A DNA stretch of 42,571 nt, taken from NCBI GenBank assembly GCA_026786275.1, contig JAJAYJ010000168.1:1-42571 (forward strand), read 5' to 3'. Positions within the stretch are counted from its first letter, which is position 1. Each line of letters starts with the position of its first letter. The position numbers and the translations under genes were made by a program. Of this stretch, positions 24,401 to 34,013 are shown in pieces. Below the pieces are notes generated by a model. It searched no databases. It had not been told where the DNA came from and worked only from the letters and a program-made list of their open reading frames with translations. The DNA comes from Nocardioides sp. GTDB lineage: Bacteria > Actinomycetota > Actinomycetes > Propionibacteriales > Nocardioidaceae.

Positions 24401-25336
24401 ATGAGTGCCATCGAGGTCGTGTCCGAGATCTTCGACGCCGAGGCGTGGGACGTCGTCCCGGGCTTCGAGGACCTGACCGACCTGACCTACCACCGGGCCA
24501 GGGAGCACGGCACGGTCCGGATCGCCTTCGACCGGCCCGACGTCCTGAACGCGTTCCGGCCGCACACGGTCGACGAGCTGCTGCGCACCCTGGAGCACGC
24601 ACGCACCAGCGGCGACGTGGGCTGCGTGCTGCTGACCGGCAACGGTCCCAGCGCGAAGAACGGCAAGTGGGCGTTCTGCACCGGCGGCGATCAGCGGATC
24701 CGGGGCCGGGCGGGCTACCAGTACCAACAGGAGCACCGCGCCGAGGGCCAGACCGCGGGCACGACGGTCGACAAGGCCAGGATGGCGCGGCTGCACATCC
24801 TGGAATGCCAGCGGCTGATCCGGTTCATGCCCAAGATCGTGATCTGTGTGGTGCCGGGCTGGACCGCCGGCGGGGGGCACAGCTTGCACGTCGTGTGTGA
24901 CCTGACCCTGGCCAGCACCGAGCAGGCCCGCTTCAAGCAGACCGACGCCGACGTCGGCTCCTTCGACGGCGGCTACGGGTCGGCGTACCTCGCCAAGCAG
25001 GTGGGCCAGAAGTTCGCCCGCGAGATCTTCTTCCTGGGGGCTGAGTACTCCGCCGAGGACGGCATGCGGATGGGGGCGGTCAACCGGGCCGTGCCGCACG
25101 CCGAGCTGGAGGCCACCGCGCTGGAGTGGGGTCGGATCGTGAACGGCAAGTCGCCGACCGCGCAGCGGATGCTGAAGTACTCCTTCAACTTGCTCGACGA
25201 CGGACTGGTCGGCCAGCAGCTCTTCGCCGGCGAGACGACCCGGCTGGCCTACATGACCGACGAGGCGGCCGAGGGCCGCGACCAGTTCCTGGAGAGGCGC
25301 GAGCCGGACTGGTCGCCGTACCCCTGGTACTACTGA
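24401..25336 (+). CDS. menB: 1,4-dihydroxy-2-naphthoyl-CoA synthase (MenB)
   Basis: A 311-residue crotonase-fold enzyme that cyclises o-succinylbenzoyl-CoA to DHNA-CoA in menaquinone biosynthesis. Diagnostic segments are VRIAFDRPDVLNAFRPHTVD, WAFCTGGDQRIRG, VVPGWTAGGGHSLHVVCDLT (oxyanion-hole glycines) and DADVGSFDGGYGSAYLAKQV, the MenB signature with the catalytic Asp and Tyr-containing loop. It ends SPYPWYY, the usual actinobacterial MenB terminus. The final 15 bases including the stop are repeated at 33266-33280, and an integrated element starts immediately after. The reading frame is left intact by the insertion. No other men genes are in the window. Confidence 0.96.
   Translation: MSAIEVVSEIFDAEAWDVVPGFEDLTDLTYHRAREHGTVRIAFDRPDVLNAFRPHTVDELLRTLEHARTSGDVGCVLLTGNGPSAKNGKWAFCTGGDQRIRGRAGYQYQQEHRAEGQTAGTTVDKARMARLHILECQRLIRFMPKIVICVVPGWTAGGGHSLHVVCDLTLASTEQARFKQTDADVGSFDGGYGSAYLAKQVGQKFAREIFFLGAEYSAEDGMRMGAVNRAVPHAELEATALEWGRIVNGKSPTAQRMLKYSFNLLDDGLVGQQLFAGETTRLAYMTDEAAEGRDQFLERREPDWSPYPWYY
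25322..25336 (+). repeat. Left attachment site core (attL), encodes PWYY-stop of MenB
   Basis: CCCTGGTACTACTGA is identical to 33266-33280. It encodes the last residues of MenB and its TGA, so insertion preserved the protein. The bases on either side differ between the two copies (C/T before, T/G after), so 15 bp is the exact identity. Confidence 0.85.
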
Positions 25337-25341
25337 TCTGG

Positions 25342-25397
25342 CGCGTTTGTGCAGCTCAGAGGCCTAATGGACCCCGATGCGTGGCAGATGCGTGGCA
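25342..25397 (+). repeat. Left-end integrase-type repeats
   Basis: CGCGTTTGTGCAGCTCAG at 25342-25359 matches 33197-33214 in 16 of 18 positions. TGCGTGGCA occurs at 25378-25386 and 25389-25397, an 11-bp period, and the same doubled motif is at 33137-33156. All copies point the same way. They are probable arm-type integrase or excisionase sites, inferred from their position just inside both ends. The rest of 25398-25485, before the integrase stop, shows nothing else clear. Confidence 0.7.
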
Positions 25398-25485
25398 AGA
25401 AGTGCGATGGACAGTCTCGACGGCCCGACTTCCCTCCGGTTCGCCGGTGCCGACTGGTACGACGAGCGCGAGGTCGGAGTCGGTT

Positions 25486-26657
25486 CTACTGGCGCGAGCG
25501 AGTGACCTCGACCTGACCACTCCGGGACACGGTAAGCACGGCCGAAGCCATGCCCGAGGCGGCTGCCCTGGTTTTGTCCTCGGCCGTCGGCCAGAGATGG
25601 GCGTAGGTGCTCAGCGTCGTGGTCGCGGATGCGTGGCCCATGGCTCGTTGCACGGTGACCACGTCGCACCCGGCGGCGATCAGGCCGCTGGCGAAGTAGT
25701 GCCGTAGGTTATGGAGTCTGTGGGTCGAGCCGGCGTCAGTGCGGGTTGAGCGCCAGCGGTAGTCGACGAGGTTGTCGTGCCACGGCTTGCCGTCCTCGTC
25801 GAAGAGCCACCGGGACGGCTCGCCGTCCGGGGTGTGCTGGCCTACGTGCTCCGAGAGAATCGTGACGAGCTCGTCGGGCAGGTAGATCGTGCGCTCTGAC
25901 TCGTACTTCGGCGGCCGAATCATGACCGTGATGCCACCGGCCGCATTCACGAGATCCTTGCCTGCCTCGACACTGGCGGCCTTCGCCCGCTGGAGTTGGC
26001 GGGTGACCCGGAGCGTCCGAGCAAGGAAGTCGATGTCACCGACCTGTACGCCGAGCGCCGCGGCGCAGGCCGGCGAAGGCGCACAACGCGACGCATGCGG
26101 TGAAGCCTGGTCGTGACTGCGGTCGATTCGGTGGCTCAGCCGCGTTGAGCAACTTCGCCACGTCGACGTTGGTCGGGATGGTCATCGCAGCCTCGGCCTT
26201 CCGCTTCCGAGGCAGCACCAAGCCGATCGTCGGATCGCTGGCGATCAGGCGATCTGCGACCGCTGCCCTGAACACGCCACGCACAATCGTGAACCGAGTG
26301 TCGATCGTTGTCGCCGCGAGCGTGGCCGTCATGTGCTTCACCCACGCCTCGACGTGCGAGCGTCGGACTGAGCGCAGCGGCAGGTCCCCGAAGGTCACCC
26401 CGGCGACGGCCAGGTTGGCGTTCTCCCGCGTGGACGACACCCAGACCTGACGAGGCGCCCAATCGACGTAGAACGCGCCGAAGGTGACCTTCCCTGCCGA
26501 GGGGTCGATCCAGTCTCCGCGGACGACCTTCGACTCCTCGGTCGCGACCCACCGCTTTGCGTCAATCTGTCGCTTGAACGACTTGGTGTGCTGCTTGCCG
26601 CCCTCGTCGCGGTACCGAACCGCGCCAGGATTGGCGCTCTTTCCAGACCCAGCCCAT
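25486..26657 (-). pseudogene. int: Tyrosine-type site-specific integrase, inactivated
   Basis: The N-terminal part reads GAVRYRDEGGKQHTKSFKRQ, then RWVATEESKVVRGDWIDPSA (arm-binding/AP2-like domain). The core-binding part is LPLRSVRRSHVEAWVKHMTA, and the catalytic part ends HRLHNLRHYFASGLIAAGCD, then GHASATTTLSTYAHLWP, with H-x-L-R-H, GH and the Tyr nucleophile. Near 26056-26065 the frame breaks: GLR is followed by out-of-frame RGARRTGR and a stop, while the other frame resumes AAALGVQVGDIDFLARTLRV. A normal GLRLGEAAAL box I is expected, so about 8-11 bases are missing, including the conserved Glu. A second shift is needed at the start: ATG 26657, which has AAGGAG upstream, is out of frame with the protein. 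No functional enzyme is expected. Confidence 0.88.
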
Positions 26658-26719
26658 GGCTGTCACTCCTTCCGATATGTCTTCATGATGCGCCCGCGCG
26701 CAGACAGAGTCGGGCGGGC

Positions 26720-26953
26720 TCAGTGGTGCTGTGGACGGTTGGTCTGCTCGGAGAGCCAGAGGATGACGTCGACGCGCCAGTAGCGGACGTGGCGCCCGAC
26801 CTTGAAGCTCCTCGGCCCGGAGCCGAGGTGGCGCCAGTAGCGCAGCGTGTTCTCCGGGACGCGGAGGAAGCGGGCGGCTTCCTTGATGGTGAGCATCTCG
26901 GCGCCAGGGTTGTGCCGGGGGTCGTTGTCGAGGTTGAAGGGCTGAGCGGTCAT
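26720..26953 (-). CDS. xis: Excisionase-like helix-turn-helix protein
   Basis: A 77-residue protein: EMLTIKEAARFLRVPENTLR, then YWRHLGSGPRSFKVGRHVRY and WRVDVILWLSEQT. This is the winged-helix HTH_17/MerR-like fold of actinobacterial excisionases, with the typical LTIKEAA start, the YWR-x-x-G-x-GP-x-x-x-K-x-G-x-x-x-RY wing and the W-LSEQ end. It bends attachment-site DNA and biases the integrase toward excision. It is intact, 60-odd bp upstream of the broken integrase on the same strand, with GAGGGGA before the ATG. Without a working integrase it can act only with one supplied from elsewhere, or as a regulator. Confidence 0.88.
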   Translation of the reverse strand: MTAQPFNLDNDPRHNPGAEMLTIKEAARFLRVPENTLRYWRHLGSGPRSFKVGRHVRYWRVDVILWLSEQTNRPQHH

Positions 26954-26991
26954 CAGAAGTCCCCTCGGTGGGGTTGTCGACCTGGTGGCCG

Positions 26992-27010
26992 GGAGGGGTG
27001 GTTCCCCTCC
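26992..27010. promoter_or_regulatory. Inverted repeat between divergent xis and XRE-type gene
   Basis: GGAGGGG (26992-26998) and CCCCTCC (27004-27010) are a perfect 7-bp inverted repeat with a 5-base spacer in the 87-bp divergent intergenic region. A second, shorter CCCC/GGGG repeat lies near 26961-26973. Either could be an operator for the XRE regulator or excisionase; this is an inference from position. Confidence 0.35.
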
Positions 27011-27040
27011 ACGACGTAGGTATGCAGGGCCTTCCTATCG

Positions 27041-27622
27041 ATGATCAGCGATAATCGGCTGACGCAGGCGAGGACATCGATCATCGAGACGGCTCGGCGT
27101 GCGGCGGGCATGTCGCAGCAGGAGTTGGCGCGTGAGGCTCGTACGGCGCAGTCGGCGGTCTCGGAGTACGAGAGTGGCCCAAGTCACCGACGTTGGCCGT
27201 CTCCGAGCGGCTACTGGCCGCCGCGAGTGCCGATCTGGTGGTGGTGCCCAGAATCGAGTTCTTCTACGACGAGGAACCGGGTGGGCGACTGTTCTTCGTA
27301 CCCGATCGGCTGTGGTCGGTGCCGCCGCCGTTGTGCTTCGCGCGGGTGCGGCTGTTGGGCTTCGAGGCGCTCGGCGAGAAGGGCGTGAGGGATCTGTCCA
27401 AGCGCCGTGATCGGATCCGGTTCTATGAGCTGGTGGTTGATCCACGGCACCCCGGAGATGATCCGGGAGGCGGTGGACGGGGCGCTGCTGGTTGATGCGT
27501 GGAGGCACCTGACACTTCCGGAATCGATACGGGAAGCGTGGGATCCGCTGATCGCTGCGGCGAAGGGTCGACGTGACACGGTCCGCAATATCGTCCCGGC
27601 ACCCGAGGACGAATGGATCTAG
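27041..27622 (+). pseudogene. XRE-type HTH protein, two frameshifts
   Basis: From ATG 27041 the frame gives LTQARTSIIETARRAAGMSQ, then QELAREARTAQSAVSEYESG, a complete Cro/C1 HTH. The conserved continuation, SPTLAVSERLLAAASADLVV and LFFVPDRLWSVPPPLCFARV, is in a second frame from about 27185. The end, IREAVDGALLVDAWRHLTLP and ESIREAWDPLIAAAKGRRDT, is in a third frame from about 27420. Together they form one HTH protein of about 190 residues with a conserved LWxxPPPLxxARV / VDGALLVDxW domain of unknown function found in actinobacteria (recalled). Two indels are needed, so it is most likely a pseudogene. If translated as is, only a truncated HTH protein would be made. It is convergent with the relaxase stub, stops touching. 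Confidence 0.7.
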
Positions 27623-28371
27623 AGCCCGAGGCCCTGCCCGGCCACCTCTGCCGGCGGCCGGTAGGTCGGCGGCGAGGTCGGCGGTCGCCGAGGCCGCTGG
27701 TTGGGCCCGTACCGGTCGATGGCGTCGACGGCAAGGGTCCGGGCGTGGCCGGGTCCGAGGTCGGCGCGATCGCGGCTGAAGACGTCGATCCACTGGTTCT
27801 TGGCTTCATCCAGGTTGTCGGCGACGAGGTGCGCTGTGTTGCTGTGACGGCCTCGGGTCATGGCGACGTACGCAGCCGCGGCGCCGGTGGCCTCGCTGAT
27901 GGCGACGTGCGCCTGGTCGACGGTCTCGCCCTGCGCCCCGTAGACGGTAGTGGCGTAGGCCAGCTCGACGTGCGCTTGCACGTATTCGCCAGGCAGGAGG
28001 CGGTCGCGACCGTGGCCATGGACGACCAGGGACCCGTCGTCCCCGAGGCCGGCGACGATCCACGTCTGCCGGTTCGCCACTCCGAGCGCCGGGTCGTTGT
28101 GGCGGGTCGCGACCAGGTCGCCGAGCCCAATCTCCTCGCCCCGCTCCGTGCTGATCGCGGGGCGGTCGTCAGTGGCGCGGCGACGTTCGCGGATGGCGGC
28201 GTTGAGGTGTACGACCTGTTCGCGGCTGTCGGCGATGACCAGCCCGTCGACCGTTGCCAAGGCCTCGGTGCGTTCGACCTCACTGGCGTGGAGCACGACG
28301 GCCGACCCCCTGCCTAGTGTGTGAAGCGTCCGCACAACAAGCATGAGCGGACGTTTGAGTGTCGCCGACAT
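27619..28371 (-). pseudogene. C-terminal stub of a MobF/TraA-type conjugative relaxase-helicase
   Basis: The open frame of 250 residues contains TVDGLVIADSREQVVHLNAA, then GEEIGLGDLVATRHNDPALG and VANRQTWIVAGLGDDGSLVV. It continues YVQAHVELAYATTVYGAQGE, then TVDQAHVAISEATGAAAAYV and AMTRGRHSNTAHLV. The last part is motif V/VI of the RecD-like helicase domain of MobF relaxases (YGAQGxTVDxAH and YVAMTRGR). The N-terminal relaxase domain (three-His metal site, catalytic Tyr) and Walker motifs are absent. Full-length relatives exceed 1000 residues, so this is a 3' fragment joined near 28371 to the two-component region. It shows that the element once carried a conjugation or mobilisation gene. Confidence 0.85.
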
Positions 28372-28421
28372 GCGGCGCCACCTAAATCAGCGAACCTGAA
28401 TCACCGACGGTGGATCAGGGC

Positions 28422-29072
28422 TCAAGCGGACGGGGTGGTCGCGGTGAGGTAGGCGAGCACCGCCAGCACCCGGCGGTGGCTCAGCCCGTCGTCCAGCAGG
28501 TCGAGCTTCTGGAAGATCGCGCGCATGTGGCTCTCGGCCGTCCGTTCGGCGCAGGCGAGCTCGGCCGCTATCCGGGCGTTGGTGTGTCCTTCGGCCGCGA
28601 GGGCCAGCACCTGTCGTTCGCGGGCGCTGAGGGCGCCCAGCCGGTCGGCGCGCAGGGAGTCGCCGACCAGGGAACGGACGACGGTGGGGTCCACCGCAGC
28701 GCCCCCCGACGCCACCACGGCGAGGGAACGGTGGAAGTCGTCGATCGCCAGGACCCGGTCCTTGAGCAGGTAGCCGAACCCGGGCTGGCCGAGCAGGGGC
28801 GCGCAGTGCCGCAGCTCGACGTGCTGGGACAGCAGCACGACCGGCAGGGTCGGGTCGTCCTCACGCAACCTCGCCACCGCTCGGGCTCCGTCGCCACCGT
28901 CGGGGGACGGCATCCGAATGTCGGCGATCACCAGCTCCGGGCGGCGCCGCCGGACCTCGACGACGAGCGCGCCGGCATCGCCCACCGCGCGGATCTCGTG
29001 CCCTGCCTCGCGCAGGATCCGTTCGAGACCCTCGCGGAAGAGGACGCTGTCCTCGGCCACCACGATGTCCAT
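28422..29072 (-). CDS. NarL/LuxR-family response regulator
   Basis: A 216-residue two-domain regulator. The receiver domain begins MDIVVAEDSVLFREGLERIL with the acidic Glu7/Asp8 pair; the phospho-acceptor is Asp51 in PELVIADIRMP and the conserved Lys is in GYLLKDRV. The C-terminal LuxR HTH reads LSARERQVLALAAEGHTNAR, then IAAELACAERTAESHMRAIF and QKLDL. Phosphorylation by the adjacent kinase should promote dimerisation and DNA binding. Its ATG overlaps the kinase stop by one base (TGATG), so the two are coupled. The target genes are unknown. It is intact, unlike most mobility genes in the element. Confidence 0.93.
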   Translation of the reverse strand: MDIVVAEDSVLFREGLERILREAGHEIRAVGDAGALVVEVRRRRPELVIADIRMPSPDGGDGARAVARLREDDPTLPVVLLSQHVELRHCAPLLGQPGFGYLLKDRVLAIDDFHRSLAVVASGGAAVDPTVVRSLVGDSLRADRLGALSARERQVLALAAEGHTNARIAAELACAERTAESHMRAIFQKLDLLDDGLSHRRVLAVLAYLTATTPSA

Positions 29073-31000
29073 CACAGGACCGCCTCGATCGTCGTACCGA
29101 CCCCGGACGGGCTGGTCACCGTAATGCTGCCACCGAGCGGATCGACCCGGTCGCGCAGGGCCGTCGGCGTGTGCTCGGGATTGACGCCGCCGATGCCGTC
29201 GTCCCGGACCACGATCGCGAGCCGACCGTCCCGAACCGCGATCTCGACCACGACCTCCGTGGCGTGCGCGTGCTTCAGCGCGTTGGCCACGGCCTCGGCG
29301 ACGACGTAGTAGGCGGCCTGCGCGACGGTCTCGTCCAGGCCGTCGCGGTTGACCTGTTCGTCGACCCGCAGGACGAGGGGAACTGGGCTCGAGTCGCGCA
29401 GCACCTCCAGCGCCGGCCCGAGGCCGTCGTCGAGCCGGGACGGCCGGACACCCTGGGAGATCCGGCGCAACTCCTCGACGGTGCCGGCGAGCTGGGTGAT
29501 CGCGGTCTCGATGTCGGCGTGCTCGGCGGTGTCTGTCGCCAGTCCGGCCTGTGCCGATCGCAGCCGCATCCCGATGGCGACCAGTGCCTGCTGGGCCCCG
29601 TCGTGCAGGTCTCGCTCGAGCTTGCGCCGTTCGGTGGACGCGGCGACGTTCAGCCGCTCACGGCTCGCCTCGACCTCCTCCAGCGCCACCCGCAGCCCTG
29701 CCCGGAGCCGGGCGCTCTCGAAGGCGCTCCAGCAGTGGCGGGCCGCCTCCTGCGCCAGACGACGGCGGCGAGCGCTGACCCGGCCGAGCTCGACGACACC
29801 GATCCGGGCGCTCCCCGCGCGCAGGACGACGTCGGCGCGCAGGTCGGTCGCCCGCCCACTCGGGTCGACCAGCCGGGGCTGACCGGGGACGGCGAGCCCG
29901 ACCCGCAGCCCGGGGTCGCGGAGCACCTCGCGCAGCACCTCCTGCACGTCCTCCGGCTCGCGCACACCCTGGTGGACGTCGGCGGCGAAGGCGCGCACGG
30001 CTGCCAGCAGCACGGTGCGCTCGCGGTCGAAGGTGGCGCCGCTCCACCGGTGGGCCCGGCGGTAGGTCGGCACCAACGCCAGGGCGGTGAGGAAGGCGGC
30101 CGCGCCGGTCTCCAGCCCGGCGGCGTCCCGGACGGCCTCGTGGACGAGTACCACCGATGCCGCCCAGACCACGGCGGCGACCGCGGAGGTGGCGACCACC
30201 GCCACTGTGTCACTGAGCAGCCGCTCGATGTCGAACAGGTCGTACCGGATCACAGCGACGGCGACCGCGGTCGGCACCAGGACGTACAGCGTGACCAGGA
30301 ACGAGGCGTACCCGACCTCAGGCGGCACCACGTCCGGAACGGTCAACCAGCTCAGCACCATCAGGACCAGGACGCAGCCGGTCGCGAGGAGCAGCCACCG
30401 GGCCTGGGCCCGTTCGGCAGCTCCCGTGCGGCGCGAGCGCCGGACGAGGTCGACCGTCGCCAGCAGCAGGGCGGTCACCAGCAGCGCCAGCCCGGTGATC
30501 GCGACGGGGACCCGCCAGCCGGTGAACTCGGCGTCCGCTCGGGTGCCCCAGTTGCCGATCAGGATCAGCACGGTGCCGGCGCCACCGGCGACCAGCACGC
30601 GGCGGGCGAAGCGCCGGCCGAGCGGCGCGGCCGGGAAGGTCAGCAGCAGCAACCCGAAACCGACCAGCTGGAGCGGCCAGATGGCCTGGACGAGCGGTGA
30701 GGCGATGTCTGCTCCCGGCCATGGGTCGGTCGTGTCCGCCGAGGCTCCCCAGTCCTCGACGGCTGGGGTGGCGGTGGCGAGGGCCGCGATGGTCGCCAGG
30801 GCCAACGGGACAGGGTTGCGGGGAGCTTTGACGGCGATCAACCAGGCGAGGACCAGGCCGGCGCCGGCGACGAGGACCTCGAGCGCGGTGCCGGTCGTGG
30901 CGGCCGCGTCGGGCAGCTCGGCGACGACCAGGACCGCGCCGCTCGCCACGGCAAGCACCGTCAACGCGCTCAACGTGACGGGCACCGGCCGGATCTGCAT
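29072..31000 (-). CDS. NarL-type sensor histidine kinase (HisKA_3)
   Basis: A 642-residue membrane kinase. The first half (about 1-290) holds roughly nine to ten membrane helices, for example VLVAGAGLVLAWLIAV and QLVGFGLLLLTFPAAPL, ending at YDLFDIERLLSDTVAVV. A GAF-like cytoplasmic segment follows. The dimerisation box is STERRKLERDLHDGAQQALV with the phospho-accepting His of DLHDGAQQ (about residue 465). The HATPase domain has YYVVAEAVANALKHAHATEV (N box) and VVRDDGIGGV (G1). The C-terminal LRDRVDPLGGSITVTSPSGV, then GTTIEAVL, is typical. It senses an unknown signal and phosphorylates the coupled regulator. The divergent gene at 31151 is an obvious candidate target. Confidence 0.93.
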   Translation of the reverse strand: MQIRPVPVTLSALTVLAVASGAVLVVAELPDAAATTGTALEVLVAGAGLVLAWLIAVKAPRNPVPLALATIAALATATPAVEDWGASADTTDPWPGADIASPLVQAIWPLQLVGFGLLLLTFPAAPLGRRFARRVLVAGGAGTVLILIGNWGTRADAEFTGWRVPVAITGLALLVTALLLATVDLVRRSRRTGAAERAQARWLLLATGCVLVLMVLSWLTVPDVVPPEVGYASFLVTLYVLVPTAVAVAVIRYDLFDIERLLSDTVAVVATSAVAAVVWAASVVLVHEAVRDAAGLETGAAAFLTALALVPTYRRAHRWSGATFDRERTVLLAAVRAFAADVHQGVREPEDVQEVLREVLRDPGLRVGLAVPGQPRLVDPSGRATDLRADVVLRAGSARIGVVELGRVSARRRRLAQEAARHCWSAFESARLRAGLRVALEEVEASRERLNVAASTERRKLERDLHDGAQQALVAIGMRLRSAQAGLATDTAEHADIETAITQLAGTVEELRRISQGVRPSRLDDGLGPALEVLRDSSPVPLVLRVDEQVNRDGLDETVAQAAYYVVAEAVANALKHAHATEVVVEIAVRDGRLAIVVRDDGIGGVNPEHTPTALRDRVDPLGGSITVTSPSGVGTTIEAVL

Positions 31001-31150
31001 GCGACCAGTGTGTCCGGTCGGGAGGCGAACCGCCTACGTGCTGACCCTTACGGAGGATCAGCAGCGGTGGCCGGGTTGGTGCGGATGGCAACGGCCGCGG
31101 ACCCGGCCAGACTCGAGGGTGTCAAGCTCCCGACCCGAAGGACACCTCCC

Positions 31151-31471
31151 GTGATCATCATCTTGTCCGTTCTCGCCGCGTTCCCGCTCGGCTACCTGGT
31201 CCGCAGCCGGACCTCCGCGTTCCTGGTCTTCGGACTCGCGTTCGCGCACCTCTTCACCTTCCAGACGGCCCAGCTCGTGCTCGAGGCCACCCGCGGGTCG
31301 GAGGACGCCTTCGGCGATGTCTCCGACCCGGCCTGGAACTGGTTCGGCGACACCGTCGGCTATCTGGCCTTCACCACCGTGATCTACGGCCTGGGGCTGG
31401 CCCTGGTGGCGGGCGGGCACGCCGTCAACCAGCGCCGGGCGCGTCGCCTGGAAGACGTCAGCGTCGCATGA
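31151..31471 (+). CDS. Small membrane protein, divergent from the two-component system
   Basis: A 106-residue protein with three predicted membrane helices: VIIILSVLAAFPLGYLVRSR, AFLVFGLAFAHLFTFQTAQL and VGYLAFTTVIYGLGLALVAG, with an acidic loop (RGSEDAFGDVSDP) and a basic tail (NQRRARRLED). AAGGA lies eight bases before GTG 31151, which sets the start; longer upstream readings are unlikely. The family is not recognised. Sitting 150 bp from the kinase start in divergent orientation, it may be controlled by the regulator or take part in sensing. Its stop overlaps the next ATG by four bases. Confidence 0.75.
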   Translation: MIIILSVLAAFPLGYLVRSRTSAFLVFGLAFAHLFTFQTAQLVLEATRGSEDAFGDVSDPAWNWFGDTVGYLAFTTVIYGLGLALVAGGHAVNQRRARRLEDVSVA

Positions 31472-31689
31472 GCGCCGAGATCATCGCCGTCCCGAGACAG
31501 CACCAGATCCCCGCCGGGGCGATGGGCCCGGACCCGGTCACGCTCGACGTCCGGGCCCACCTGGTGCCGTGCGAGACGGGGCTGGTGCTGGTCGACACCG
31601 GCATGGACCTCTCCGGCGAGGCGATCGACAATGCGCTCGTCGCCGCGGGTGCGTCCTGGTCGGACTGTCCCACGTCGTGCTGACCTACG
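31468..31689 (+). pseudogene. N-terminal fragment of a metallo-beta-lactamase-fold hydrolase
   Basis: ATG 31468 overlaps the preceding stop (ATGA). The reading VTLDVRAHLVPCETGLVLVD, then TGMDLSGEAIDNALVAAGAS, is the N-terminal strand region of a metallo-beta-lactamase-fold hydrolase (LVDTG motif). After SWSD one base is missing and the frame shifts: SHVVLT follows in another frame, but the expected H-x-H-x-D-H zinc motif is absent (TYGRP instead). Sequence of a different kind begins at about 31690. Only about 75 residues remain, so no enzyme is expected. Confidence 0.7.
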
Positions 31690-31921
31690 GGCGGCCTCTC
31701 TCGCCGCGGCCTTCGGCCTCGGTGTTGTCCTCGCATCGGCGAACATCACCGATGTGCCTCGGTCGCTGCTCGTCGCCGTACTCGTGTGGGTGTGCTTCAC
31801 CGTCGCCATCGAGCTACCAGCCTTCGCACTAGAGCGCGCGCCACGCAGATTCGCCATCGGTGCCGGCCACGAGCTCCTCGTCTACCTCGCTATCGCCGTG
31901 GTCTTCGGGCTTGGGAGATAG
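31690..31921 (+). pseudogene. C-terminal fragment of a small membrane protein (possibly DUF1761-like)
   Basis: The reading LAAAFGLGVVLASANITDVP, then RSLLVAVLVWVCFTVAIELP and AFALERAPRRFAIGAGHELL, ending VYLAIAVVFGLGR, looks like the last two or three helices of a small membrane protein. The layout (helix, F-E-R-R-P-like loop, helix) recalls DUF1761, a tentative call. It has no start of its own and is joined directly to the metallo-beta-lactamase fragment, so it marks a deletion or recombination junction. Confidence 0.45.
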
Positions 31922-32202
31922 GAACTTCTCCGACAGCGCTGAAATTGCCGAAACGCAATACCCAGCCAGTCTGCGTCAGGAGACGAGTCGGGGCAGCGCT
32001 AACGCTCTGTCATCGGCATCCGGTAAATGCGTCGTGGACAGGTGGGAGGCAACGGGGTCGATCGCGGGATGACGCGGCTTCGGCGGACGCGTTGATCGCT
32101 GCAGCAGCGACTTCGCCGCCGGAGTGGCGTCGACTAGGCCTGGGGAACGCAGCCAGAGCTCGGAGTCATTTCGGGCCTCACGCTGCTCGGGACGGACGAT
32201 GC
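31922..32202. other. Intergenic stretch with no recognisable gene
   Basis: About 280 bp within the island. I found no coding frame with a recognisable product, no strong hairpin and no clear repeat. It is probably decayed sequence between two gene fragments. Confidence 0.5.
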
Positions 32203-32505
32203 TCACGCGGCGACGGAGACGTCGGTAGGCGTCGCTGCAGAGGCGTTCTGTCGACGCGACATGATGATCGCCGCAGCGATGAGCCAGAACGGCAGCAGCA
32301 GCTAGTTCACCAGGCCGCCAGGTGGGATGCTCGCTGCCCCGAGCATCGCCAGGACGCCCAGGACGCCCAGGACGATGGTGGTGATGGCGAACCACTTGGG
32401 CAGCACCTGGCTGCGGACGCCGCCCAGTCCCATCGCGATGAAGGCAGTGGAGATCCCGATGCCCATCGCCAGCCAGCCCGCATCCGCGTGGTTTGGGCTG
32501 CTCAA
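32203..32505 (-). pseudogene. Membrane-protein fragment interrupted by an in-frame amber stop
   Basis: On the minus strand a frame reads AGWLAMGIGISTAFIAMGLG, then VLPKWFAITTIVLGVLGVLA and MLGAASIPPGGLVN, then TAG (32302-32304). It continues in the same frame LLLPFWLIAAAIIMSRRQNA and SAATPTDVSVAA to TGA at 32203. The hydrophobic sequence resumes directly after the TAG, so the stop is best explained as a point mutation. The N-terminal half is missing upstream of about 32505. The family is not identified with confidence; it looks like the last three helices of a four-helix protein. Confidence 0.6.
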
Positions 32506-32544
32506 GGCCTGCTGGTCGCCGCAGGCGGCGCGTACCCTGACCGC

Positions 32545-32790
32545 ATGTCGTTGAGCGCATCGGAGTTCTACGAGGCTGGGATGTCCTTGCCTCCTGAGGT
32601 GCGCAAGGATGTGGCGCTGCGGCTTCTCGAATCGGTCGAGTCGGATGACGGTTTCGACCAGGCTGCCGAGGAATGGCTGCACACCACGGCCGCTCCGGCG
32701 TTCGATGCGTTGAAGGCCGACCCGTCGCGCGCGATCCCGGCCGAGGACGTCAGGGCTCGCTTCGAAGCCAAGTGGGCCGCCCGTTCATGA
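32545..32790 (+). CDS. Addiction-module antitoxin of the ParE/RelE-type pair
   Basis: An 81-residue protein: ASEFYEAGMSLPPEVRKDVA, then LRLLESVESDDGFDQAAEEW, ending AFDALKADPSRAIPAEDVRA. The LPPEVRxxxALRLLES start and the AIPAEDVRARFEAKW end match short addiction-module proteins that pair with RelE/ParE toxins (helical, unstable). It should bind and neutralise the toxin and repress the operon. ATG 32545 is used. The four-base overlap with the toxin start and the intact frame, in an otherwise decayed segment, suggest selection to keep it. Confidence 0.83.
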   Translation: MSLSASEFYEAGMSLPPEVRKDVALRLLESVESDDGFDQAAEEWLHTTAAPAFDALKADPSRAIPAEDVRARFEAKWAARS

Positions 32791-33128
32791 CGGGCCGGAT
32801 CAACTACACCCCTGAACCCGAGCAGCAACTCCAGGATCTCGACGACTGGATCACCAAGGCGGCGTCGGCCGAGATCGCCCAGCAGTTCGTGTCGGCGATC
32901 CTCGACCACATCGACGGCATCTTGGTGTTCCCGCTCGCCGGCCGAGCGCGAGACGACGTCCGACCGGGCATGCGGACAACCACCTTCAGGAAGAGGACCC
33001 TCGTCGCCTACGAGGTCGATGAGGCGTCCGGCGAGCTCGTGGTCAACATCCTCGGTGTCCTCCACGGTGGCCAGGACTGGGAGTCCGCACTCGGCGAGGA
33101 CCCGGGCGACTCGGAGGCAGGTCGGTGA
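32787..33128 (+). CDS. ParE/RelE-family toxin
   Basis: A 113-residue toxin: RINYTPEPEQQLQDLDDWIT, then AQQFVSAILDHIDGILVFPL, AGRARDDVRPGMRTTTFRKR and TLVAYEVDEASGELVVNILG, ending VLHGGQDWESAL. This is the ParE/RelE fold: N-terminal helical hairpin, the G-R-x-R-D-D-x-R-P-G-x-R strand, and the V-L-H-G-x-Q-D end. Family members either poison gyrase (ParE-like) or cut mRNA on the ribosome (RelE-like); the VLHGGQDW end favours ParE-like. It lies only 138 bp from the attR core, so loss of the element would remove the antitoxin and penalise the cell. Confidence 0.88.
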   Translation: MTGRINYTPEPEQQLQDLDDWITKAASAEIAQQFVSAILDHIDGILVFPLAGRARDDVRPGMRTTTFRKRTLVAYEVDEASGELVVNILGVLHGGQDWESALGEDPGDSEAGR

Positions 33129-33136
33129 CGCGTCCG

Positions 33137-33214
33137 TGCGTGGCAAATGCGTGGCAGTAGAGCCAGCGGCGACCGGTCGCAGTCAACGCCCGCCAACGCG
33201 TTTGCGCAGGTCAG
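33137..33214 (+). repeat. Right-end integrase-type repeats
   Basis: TGCGTGGCA occurs at 33137-33145 and 33148-33156 with the same 11-bp period as at the left end. CGCGTTTGCGCAGGTCAG at 33197-33214 matches the left copy at 25342-25359 in 16 of 18 positions. All have the same orientation as at the left, but the order relative to the core is mirrored (arm pair, then 18-mer, then core). Confidence 0.7.
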
Positions 33215-33265
33215 CCGCACATTGCCAACAACGACCGCCAGTACCCGCTGAGCGTGCCGCGCTTT

Positions 33266-33280
33266 CCCTGGTACTACTGA
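33266..33280 (+). repeat. Right attachment site core (attR)
   Basis: CCCTGGTACTACTGA, identical to the end of menB. The sequence before it does not encode MenB, so this is an attachment-site copy rather than a gene duplication. cobB starts 34 bp further on, after a tandem 11-12-bp repeat (CCCCGTGAGAG at about 33282 and 33294). Confidence 0.82.
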
Positions 33281-33314: not shown

Positions 33315-34013
33315 ATGAGAGTCGTGGTCCTGACCGGTGCCGGCATCTCCGCGGAGAGCGGGGTGCCGACCTTCCGTGACGCCGACGGACTCTGGGAGGG
33401 CCACCAGGTGGAGGAGGTCGCGACGCCCGAGGGCTACGACCTCCAGCCCACGATGGTGCAGCGCTTCTACGACGACCGGCGCGCGGCCCTGGCCCACGTG
33501 CAGCCCAACCCGGCCCACCTCGCACTGGCCCGCCTGGAGCAGGTGCTGGGCGACGACTTCCTCGTGGTGACCCAGAACATCGACGACCTGCACGAGCGGG
33601 GCGGCTCCACCCGGGTGCTGCACATGCACGGCGAGCTGCTCTCCGCCCTGTGCCGTGGCTGCCGGCAGCGGATGCGGTGGGAGCAGGACCTTGTCGACTT
33701 CCCGCCCTGCCCGCGGTGCGGGGTGGCCGAGCTGCGACCCGACGTGGTGTGGTTCGGCGAGGTGCCCTACGAGATGGACCGGATCGCCTTCGCGCTGGAG
33801 CGGTGCGACCTGTTCGTGTCCATCGGCACCTCGGGTGCGGTCTACCCGGCGGCCGGCTTCGTGCAGGCCGCGACGACGTACGGCGCCCGCACGCTCGAGC
33901 TCAACCTGCTGCCGAGCGAGGGCGCGTCGCACTTCGCGGAGTCCCGCCAGGGCCTCGCGGGCACCCTGGTGCCGCAGTGGGTCGCGCAGCTGCTGGGGGA
34001 GGGCCCGTCCTAG
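33315..34013 (+). CDS. cobB: NAD-dependent protein deacylase, SIR2/CobB class III
   Basis: A 232-residue sirtuin. VVLTGAGISAESGVPTFRDA is the NAD-binding motif, TQNIDDLHERGG and HMHGEL give the catalytic His region, and CRGC with CPRCG supplies the four zinc-binding cysteines. RFYDDRRAAL holds the Tyr-x-x-Arg pair that distinguishes desuccinylating/demalonylating class III sirtuins (SIRT5 and E. coli CobB type). It removes acyl groups from protein lysines using NAD+ and so can reactivate acyl-CoA synthetases. ATG 33315 follows the attR core by 34 bp. Before insertion of the element this gene would have lain directly downstream of menB. Confidence 0.94.
   Translation: MRVVVLTGAGISAESGVPTFRDADGLWEGHQVEEVATPEGYDLQPTMVQRFYDDRRAALAHVQPNPAHLALARLEQVLGDDFLVVTQNIDDLHERGGSTRVLHMHGELLSALCRGCRQRMRWEQDLVDFPPCPRCGVAELRPDVVWFGEVPYEMDRIAFALERCDLFVSIGTSGAVYPAAGFVQAATTYGARTLELNLLPSEGASHFAESRQGLAGTLVPQWVAQLLGEGPS

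What the first reader, a model, noticed from the sequence alone, without database searches (positions are those of the whole stretch)
25322..33280. Integrative element inserted in the 3' end of menB
A 15-bp direct repeat (CCCTGGTACTACTGA) lies at the end of menB and again 7.9 kb away, just before cobB. It spans the final codons and stop of MenB, so insertion leaves the protein unchanged. Between the copies are int, xis, a relaxase stub and a toxin-antitoxin pair. Elements of this kind usually use tRNA genes; a menaquinone-biosynthesis gene as the attachment site is unusual and I do not recall it described.
Basis: partly seen in the sequence, partly recalled or inferred. Interest (0 to 1): 0.85.

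Follow-up and report, generated by a model that had tools for sequence, protein, structure and literature searches.

The report
Decayed mobile element docked in menB
A worn-out mobile DNA element sits at the very end of a vitamin K2 (menaquinone) gene in an actinobacterium, and relatives show that this gene end is a repeatedly used docking site that leaves the gene's product unchanged.

Summary
The 15-mer CCCTGGTACTACTGA occurs exactly twice in the window and in the whole MAG: at the last codons and stop of menB, and 34 bp before cobB. Paired TGCGTGGCA sites lie at both ends and nowhere else in the window. Both ends match a complete 21.3-kb relative, G153. In the genus, 24 of 215 genomes carry two or more 15-mers; in 20 of these menB ends in the first copy. 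Twelve relatives with 132-751 bp between menB and cobB hold one copy and no post-core motif. Among 341 genomes of the family, the 16 best-scoring full-length integrases all lie 0.05-8.2 kb after menB, in 4 genera. The window copy is decayed: integrase and regulator frames are broken and the relaxase is a C-terminal stub. Four complete relatives encode a TrwC relaxase; no transfer apparatus appeared among the ORFs tested, so they look like integrative mobilizable elements. Sister integrases sit at the 3' end of ychF, one at a 3-hydroxyacyl-CoA dehydrogenase gene. My literature searches found no report of menB as target. Known kind, new site.

The parts
24401..25336 (+). menB, target gene, intact
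   Evidence: NF006186 equivalog, 555 bits
25322..25336 (+). attL core: last four codons and stop of menB
25352..25359 (+). post-core motif CAGNTCAG, 15 bp after the core
   Evidence: core plus motif in 37 of 215 genus genomes, control 0; spacing
25378..25397 (+). pair of putative arm sites TGCGTGGCA (left)
   Evidence: binding is inferred
25486..26671 (-). tyrosine integrase, reading frame broken twice
26720..26953 (-). excisionase-like HTH protein
   Evidence: HTH_17, weak TIGR01764
27041..27622 (+). XRE-type regulator, frames broken
27619..28371 (-). relaxase stub (C-terminal part)
   Evidence: TraA_Ti match, residues 632-878 of the G153 relaxase
28422..29075 (-). response regulator, cargo
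29072..31000 (-). histidine kinase, cargo
31010..31471 (+). membrane-type protein, weak VanZ-like match
   Evidence: below cut-off
31631..31921 (+). DUF1761 C-terminal fragment
   Evidence: profile 51-123 of 123
32545..32790 (+). putative antitoxin
   Evidence: PF09720 below cut-off; start
32787..33128 (+). ParE-family toxin
   Evidence: PF05016, E 1.9e-12
33137..33156 (+). pair of putative arm sites TGCGTGGCA (right)
   Evidence: binding is inferred
33137..33280 (+). element right end, matches the last 144 bp of G153
   Evidence: same block before second cores of relatives
33266..33280 (+). attR core
33315..34013 (+). cobB (Sir2 family), right flank

Best explanation
The 7.9 kb are the remains of a site-specifically integrated element. 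Its tyrosine integrase recombined an attP on a circular form with attB, the last four codons and stop of menB (Pro-Trp-Tyr-Tyr-stop). The core is identical on both sides, so menB stays whole at attL and a spare copy marks attR before cobB. The paired TGCGTGGCA sites are most likely where the integrase N-terminal domain binds the attP arms, and the xis-like protein would drive excision. Complete relatives encode a TrwC relaxase and no transfer apparatus that I saw, so they most likely move as integrative mobilizable elements helped by a conjugative element or plasmid. The window copy has lost most of the relaxase and has a broken integrase, but keeps cargo and a toxin-antitoxin pair next to attR, so it probably no longer moves by itself. 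Shown by sequence: repeat, ends, integrase family, empty sites, recurrence. Inferred: recombination chemistry, arm binding, mobilization, immobility.
For: Repeat and uniqueness. TGCGTGGCA only at the two ends of the window's element. Both ends match the complete element G153: three blocks within its first 2,984 bp, and its last 144 bp. 24 of 215 genus genomes have 2 or more copies, the reversed control 1 match in all; 22 of the 24 have them on one contig and strand, and in 20 of these menB ends in the first copy. L022 (Aeromicrobium MAG) has a different menB end and repeats its own version exactly 1,367 bp downstream. Empty sites: 12 genomes, 132-751 bp from core to cobB, one core each, none with the post-core motif. 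The 16 best full-length integrases in 341 genomes lie 49-8,196 bp after menB. Core plus motif in 37 of 215, control 0, and in 12 of 12 genus genomes with a full-length menB-clade integrase. TrwC relaxase in G153, G062, G090, G092.
Against: No excised circle and no experiment. Of the 24 genomes with 2 or more copies, G134's second copy is on another contig in unrelated sequence, G183's copies are on different contigs, and G199 and G208 show no menB in the stretch fetched. Six of the 20 menB pairs show no integrase of this family at the threshold used. G102 and G167 have the integrase after menB but one exact core only. Only the top 9 or 5 first-look candidates per genome were scored. The window's broken frames could be assembly errors in a MAG. 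T4SS genes were not exhaustively sought. For G016 no relaxase ORF was put to Pfam, only a tblastn match seen.
Confidence: 0.93

Rival explanations
1. Defective prophage rather than a mobilizable element (a rival for the kind of element, not for the site).
For: The wider integrase family occurs in 28 IMG/VR contigs at up to 52% identity, one of them with ychF in the fetched stretch; phage integrases match at about 30% in the rows listed.
Against: Four complete relatives encode a TrwC relaxase and the window has a relaxase stub; no phage structural gene appeared among the ORFs tested with Pfam; none of the 28 fetched viral stretches held menB or the menB core (flanks of at most 5 kb, not whole contigs).
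Confidence: 0.03
2. An integrative and conjugative element with its own type IV secretion system, whose transfer genes are lost in the window copy. This concerns only the transfer clause of the best explanation; integration at menB holds either way.
For: Some pairs are 24-60 kb apart and were not annotated in full (G157, G035, G060, G108).
Against: Among the ORFs tested in G153, G062, G090, G092 and G016 no VirB4/VirD4-type match appeared; not every ORF was tested.
Confidence: 0.12
3. The second 15-mer is chance or a simple duplication of the menB end.
For: Only 15 bp are shared, and menB ends are conserved in sequence.
Against: About 3e-6 expected in 10 kb; recurrence in 20 genomes; the sequence before the second copy is an element right-end block, not menB.
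Confidence: 0.01
4. The middle (RR/HK, 28.4-31.0 kb) is ancestral chromosome and only the flanks are foreign.
For: Its GC is 72-75%, like the chromosome, against 66-70% for the parts on either side.
Against: RR/HK relatives of 80 bits or more lay in 1 of the 80 menB loci, a distant one (L031); the 12 shortest empty sites have room for one small gene at most.
Confidence: 0.04

Closest known systems
Integrative mobilizable elements with tyrosine integrase, Xis and TrwC/MobF relaxase (general class, recalled)
   Same: int-xis-regulator-relaxase at one end, variable cargo, direct-repeat att sites
   Different: Attachment site is the menB 3' end; the window copy is decayed
Islands at the 3' end of a protein gene, such as SGI1-type islands at trmE (PMC8409611, PMC7449626: search listing and start of abstract only)
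   Same: Site-specific insertion at a protein-gene end
   Different: Different host group and target gene; integrases not compared here
TIGER/Islander genomic island survey (PMC12424338, whole text read)
   Same: Reports 43.4% of about 1.75 million islands in protein genes, so this kind of site is common
Pneumococcal prophage next to ychF (PMC6375853, passages only)
   Same: Involves ychF, the target of the sister integrases found here
   Different: There ychF lies downstream of the prophage, its expression is affected and the core is another 14-bp repeat; here the 3' end of ychF is used

Membership tests
Site-specific integrative element (tyrosine integrase) | Direct-repeat att cores, one spanning the target gene end | tested here: met
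Site-specific integrative element (tyrosine integrase) | Empty site in relatives with a single core | tested here: met
   12 genomes, 132-751 bp from core to cobB
Site-specific integrative element (tyrosine integrase) | Integrase gene near an att site | tested here: met
   About 150 bp from attL in the window, frame broken; 16 of the 16 best-scoring full-length ones in the family after menB
Site-specific integrative element (tyrosine integrase) | Intact integrase frame in this copy | tested here: not met
   Two frame breaks; sequence errors not excluded. The window copy is therefore filed as a remnant; excision itself is not testable here
Integrative mobilizable element (IME) | Relaxase encoded | tested here: met
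   TrwC in G153, G062, G090, G092; in the window only a stub
Integrative mobilizable element (IME) | No own type IV secretion system | tested here: inconclusive
   None among the ORFs tested in five elements; not all ORFs tested
Integrative mobilizable element (IME) | Origin of transfer and actual mobilization | not testable with these tools
   Mobilization needs an experiment; oriT was not sought
AICE (actinomycete integrative conjugative element, recalled) | FtsK-type TraB translocase and replication initiator, usually a tRNA target (recalled) | tested here: inconclusive
   Not seen among the ORFs tested; no tRNA in the window

The most novel reading that the evidence does not exclude
One lineage of mobilizable elements has switched its docking site among the 3' ends of unrelated protein genes (menB, ychF, a 3-hydroxyacyl-CoA dehydrogenase). 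It keeps its xis-relaxase backbone and a post-core motif and reads a loose code, C.C....AC..CTGA, that includes the TGA stop codon, while the type of arm site follows the integrase subclade. These gene ends then act as accretion hotspots for defence and toxin-antitoxin cargo.
Probability: 0.4. Interest if true: 0.6.

Novelty: new member of a known kind. Interest (0 to 1): 0.48.

Why it matters
It gives actinobacterial genetics a recurrent attachment site in a conserved biosynthetic gene, with many natural attL/attR pairs and two sister targets. That is a compact natural series for asking how tyrosine integrases change target, and a possible integration tool for Nocardioides. It also helps to explain why the menB-cobB interval is so variable and can carry restriction-modification and CBASS-like genes.

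Tried and rejected
Chance repeat and menB-end duplication rejected. tRNA target rejected: no tRNA in the window nor in four menB-clade loci scanned, L169 and L176-L178. Prophage origin considered, not supported. Plasmids: 29.3% identity at most in the 15 of 325 records listed; phages: 30.6% at most in the 15 of 1180 listed. A discrete 2.3-kb mini-element was considered because five pairs are 2.32-2.37 kb apart (G028, G096, G175, G208, G216); the interiors are not one sequence: G216, G208, L011 and part of G188 are alike, G028 and G096 share 1.2 kb, and G175 resembles the window (its output was cut). I read them as separately shortened elements. Literature: the listings showed nothing on menB as attachment site; passages of PMC2909200 are unrelated; a term search of PMC12884075 found no 'menB'. 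Mageeney et al. 2020 (gkaa156) is not held and was not read. Distances between menB, cobB, ychF and integrases were compared by eye or from typed coordinates; the listings are truncated.
Full report
OBSERVATION. The 15-mer CCCTGGTACTACTGA is at 25322-25336 and 33266-33280 and nowhere else in the window or in the source MAG (G000, 2.7 Mb, 189 contigs, 77.6% complete; the window is G000:C168:1-42571). menB (24401-25336) is a full menB equivalog and ends with the first copy, so the protein ends Pro-Trp-Tyr-Tyr. cobB starts at 33315, 34 bp after the second copy.

ANATOMY. TGCGTGGCA occurs four times in the window: 42 and 53 bp after the left core's last base, and twice shortly before the right core. 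A CAGNTCAG motif follows the left core after 15 bp. The integrase lies antisense to menB; its halves are in different frames and its start in a third. Next come an excisionase-like gene, an XRE-type regulator with broken frames, and the relaxase stub. An intact response regulator and histidine kinase, smaller ORFs including a DUF1761 fragment, and a ParE toxin with a putative antitoxin fill the rest. GC is 66-70% on both sides and 72-75% over the RR/HK part. The element between the two cores of G153 is 21.3 kb. The window matches it in three blocks within its first 2,984 bp and over its last 144 bp, and nowhere between at the threshold used.

EMPTY SITES. From coordinates I fetched 15 genomes with short menB-cobB intervals. 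All 15 have one core in the stretch; core to cobB is 132 bp in G003, 461-751 bp in 11 others and 1.1-1.3 kb in three. None of the 12 shortest has the post-core motif. Elsewhere the interval can reach tens of kilobases (about 89 kb in G120).

RECURRENCE. The genus is Nocardioides by inference: G004 and G011 share menB coordinates with the named records L007 and L004. Of its 215 genomes (own included), 182 have the 15-mer and 24 have two or more; the reversed control gave 1 match. Of the 24, 22 have copies on one contig and strand; G134 and G183 do not. In 20 of the 22 menB ends in the first copy; in G199 and G208 no menB lies in the stretch fetched. Of these 20, eight have a long integrase match in one frame (G016, G060, G062, G090, G092, G108, G153, G207), the window has a broken one, five have fragments (G028, G128, G157, G175, G195) and six none at the threshold used (G035, G080, G096, G151, G188, G216). 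Core plus motif occurs in 37 of 215 genomes, control 0, and in 21 of the 24 with two or more cores. The Aeromicrobium MAG locus L022 repeats its own variant core.

INTEGRASE CLADE. A nine-sequence alignment searched in the genus gave 12 full-length integrases at 654-751 bits, all shortly after a menB core. The next full-length ones are at 526 bits or less, and none of those whose coordinates I could compare is beside menB. Partial copies beside menB do occur (G014, G034, G128, G175, and G714 in another genus). In the family (341 genomes, 26 genera) 16 score 638 bits or more, all 16 within 49-8,196 bp after menB, in four genera (12 in the genus, then G640 and G651, G753, G713). At most 9 and 5 candidates per genome were scored in these two searches. 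In G713, at 8.2 kb, a mutated core lies next to the integrase, which suggests two elements in tandem. In a 396-genome phylum sample only three other genomes reached E <= 1e-80, at 304-442 bits; menB was not found in their 4- to 7.5-kb stretches.

SISTER TARGETS. Of 40 genomes checked for ychF (TIGR00092), 29 have a sister integrase within 20 kb beyond the ychF 3' end by my reading of the coordinates. Three (G670, G024, G120) have it far away on the same contig, six have the two on different contigs (G021, G707, G680, G149, G195, G022), G197 had no ychF match, and G714's integrase is the menB-side one. Second copies of the last 15 bp of ychF were found in 5 of 12 fetched regions, two exact and three with one mismatch. 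G707's integrase overlaps the end of a 3-hydroxyacyl-CoA dehydrogenase gene; no second exact copy of those 15 bp is in the fetched stretch. A FastTree of 38 sequences (the window's halves not included) puts the 16 menB integrases together (local support 0.844), G707 as sister (0.975), and 18 others together (0.917): 17 beside ychF and G021, whose target is undecided. The last 15 bp of the three genes share C.C....AC..CTGA, each pair 9 of 15. I set these windows at the stop codon, so three of the shared letters are given; this is suggestive only.

WHAT MOVES. G153, G062, G090 and G092 encode TrwC relaxases. Cargo: a chromate transporter, MFS and ABC transporters in G153; type I restriction-modification plus a CBASS-like cyclase and phospholipase in G062; type I restriction-modification in G090; a MmeI-like type IIG enzyme in G016. 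Some shortened elements keep ParE-like, PIN/Phd-like or Fic genes. I infer integrative mobilizable elements; absence of a T4SS is not fully tested.

NOVELTY. The listings showed no paper on menB as attachment site; the library is open-access only. Protein-gene sites are common in surveys (PMC12424338). So this is a new site and family of a known kind. Target switching within one integrase lineage is the more interesting lead.

Noticed in passing
L200, L206-L209, L219-L230: Sister integrases of the same family sit beyond the 3' end of ychF, with repeats of the ychF end in 5 of 12 fetched regions and a similar post-core motif.
   Followed up: partly
L231:14333-16689 (G707): A third target: the integrase overlaps the end of a 3-hydroxyacyl-CoA dehydrogenase gene.
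   Followed up: partly
L115 (G062), L118 (G090), L129 (G016): Elements at menB carry anti-phage-type cargo: type I RM plus CBASS-like genes, type I RM, and a type IIG enzyme.
   Followed up: partly
L117 (G080), L130 (G175), L116 (G028), L139 (G208), L140 (G216), L011: Shortened elements of 1.6-2.4 kb keep toxin-antitoxin-like or Fic genes although the integrase is lost or cut short; persistence by addiction is possible.
   Followed up: partly
post-core regions shown: Three kinds of arm-like repeats (TGCGTGGCA, AGTCCGCA, TGCCCTCAC) seem to follow integrase subclades; not counted.
   Followed up: no
L113/L114 (G060), L115, L118, L129, L127, L140, G713: Three cores in G060, and more than one core followed by the post-core motif in G060, G062, G090, G016, G157 and G216, suggest tandem accretion of elements at menB.
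   Followed up: partly
window 28422-31000: Intact two-component system in the middle of an otherwise decayed element, with chromosome-like GC; origin unknown.
   Followed up: no
L202:2025-2113, L183:78-166: ARAGORN calls a tRNA-Ser (gga) within the stretch matching the relaxase end of two sister elements; not checked, may be false.
   Followed up: no
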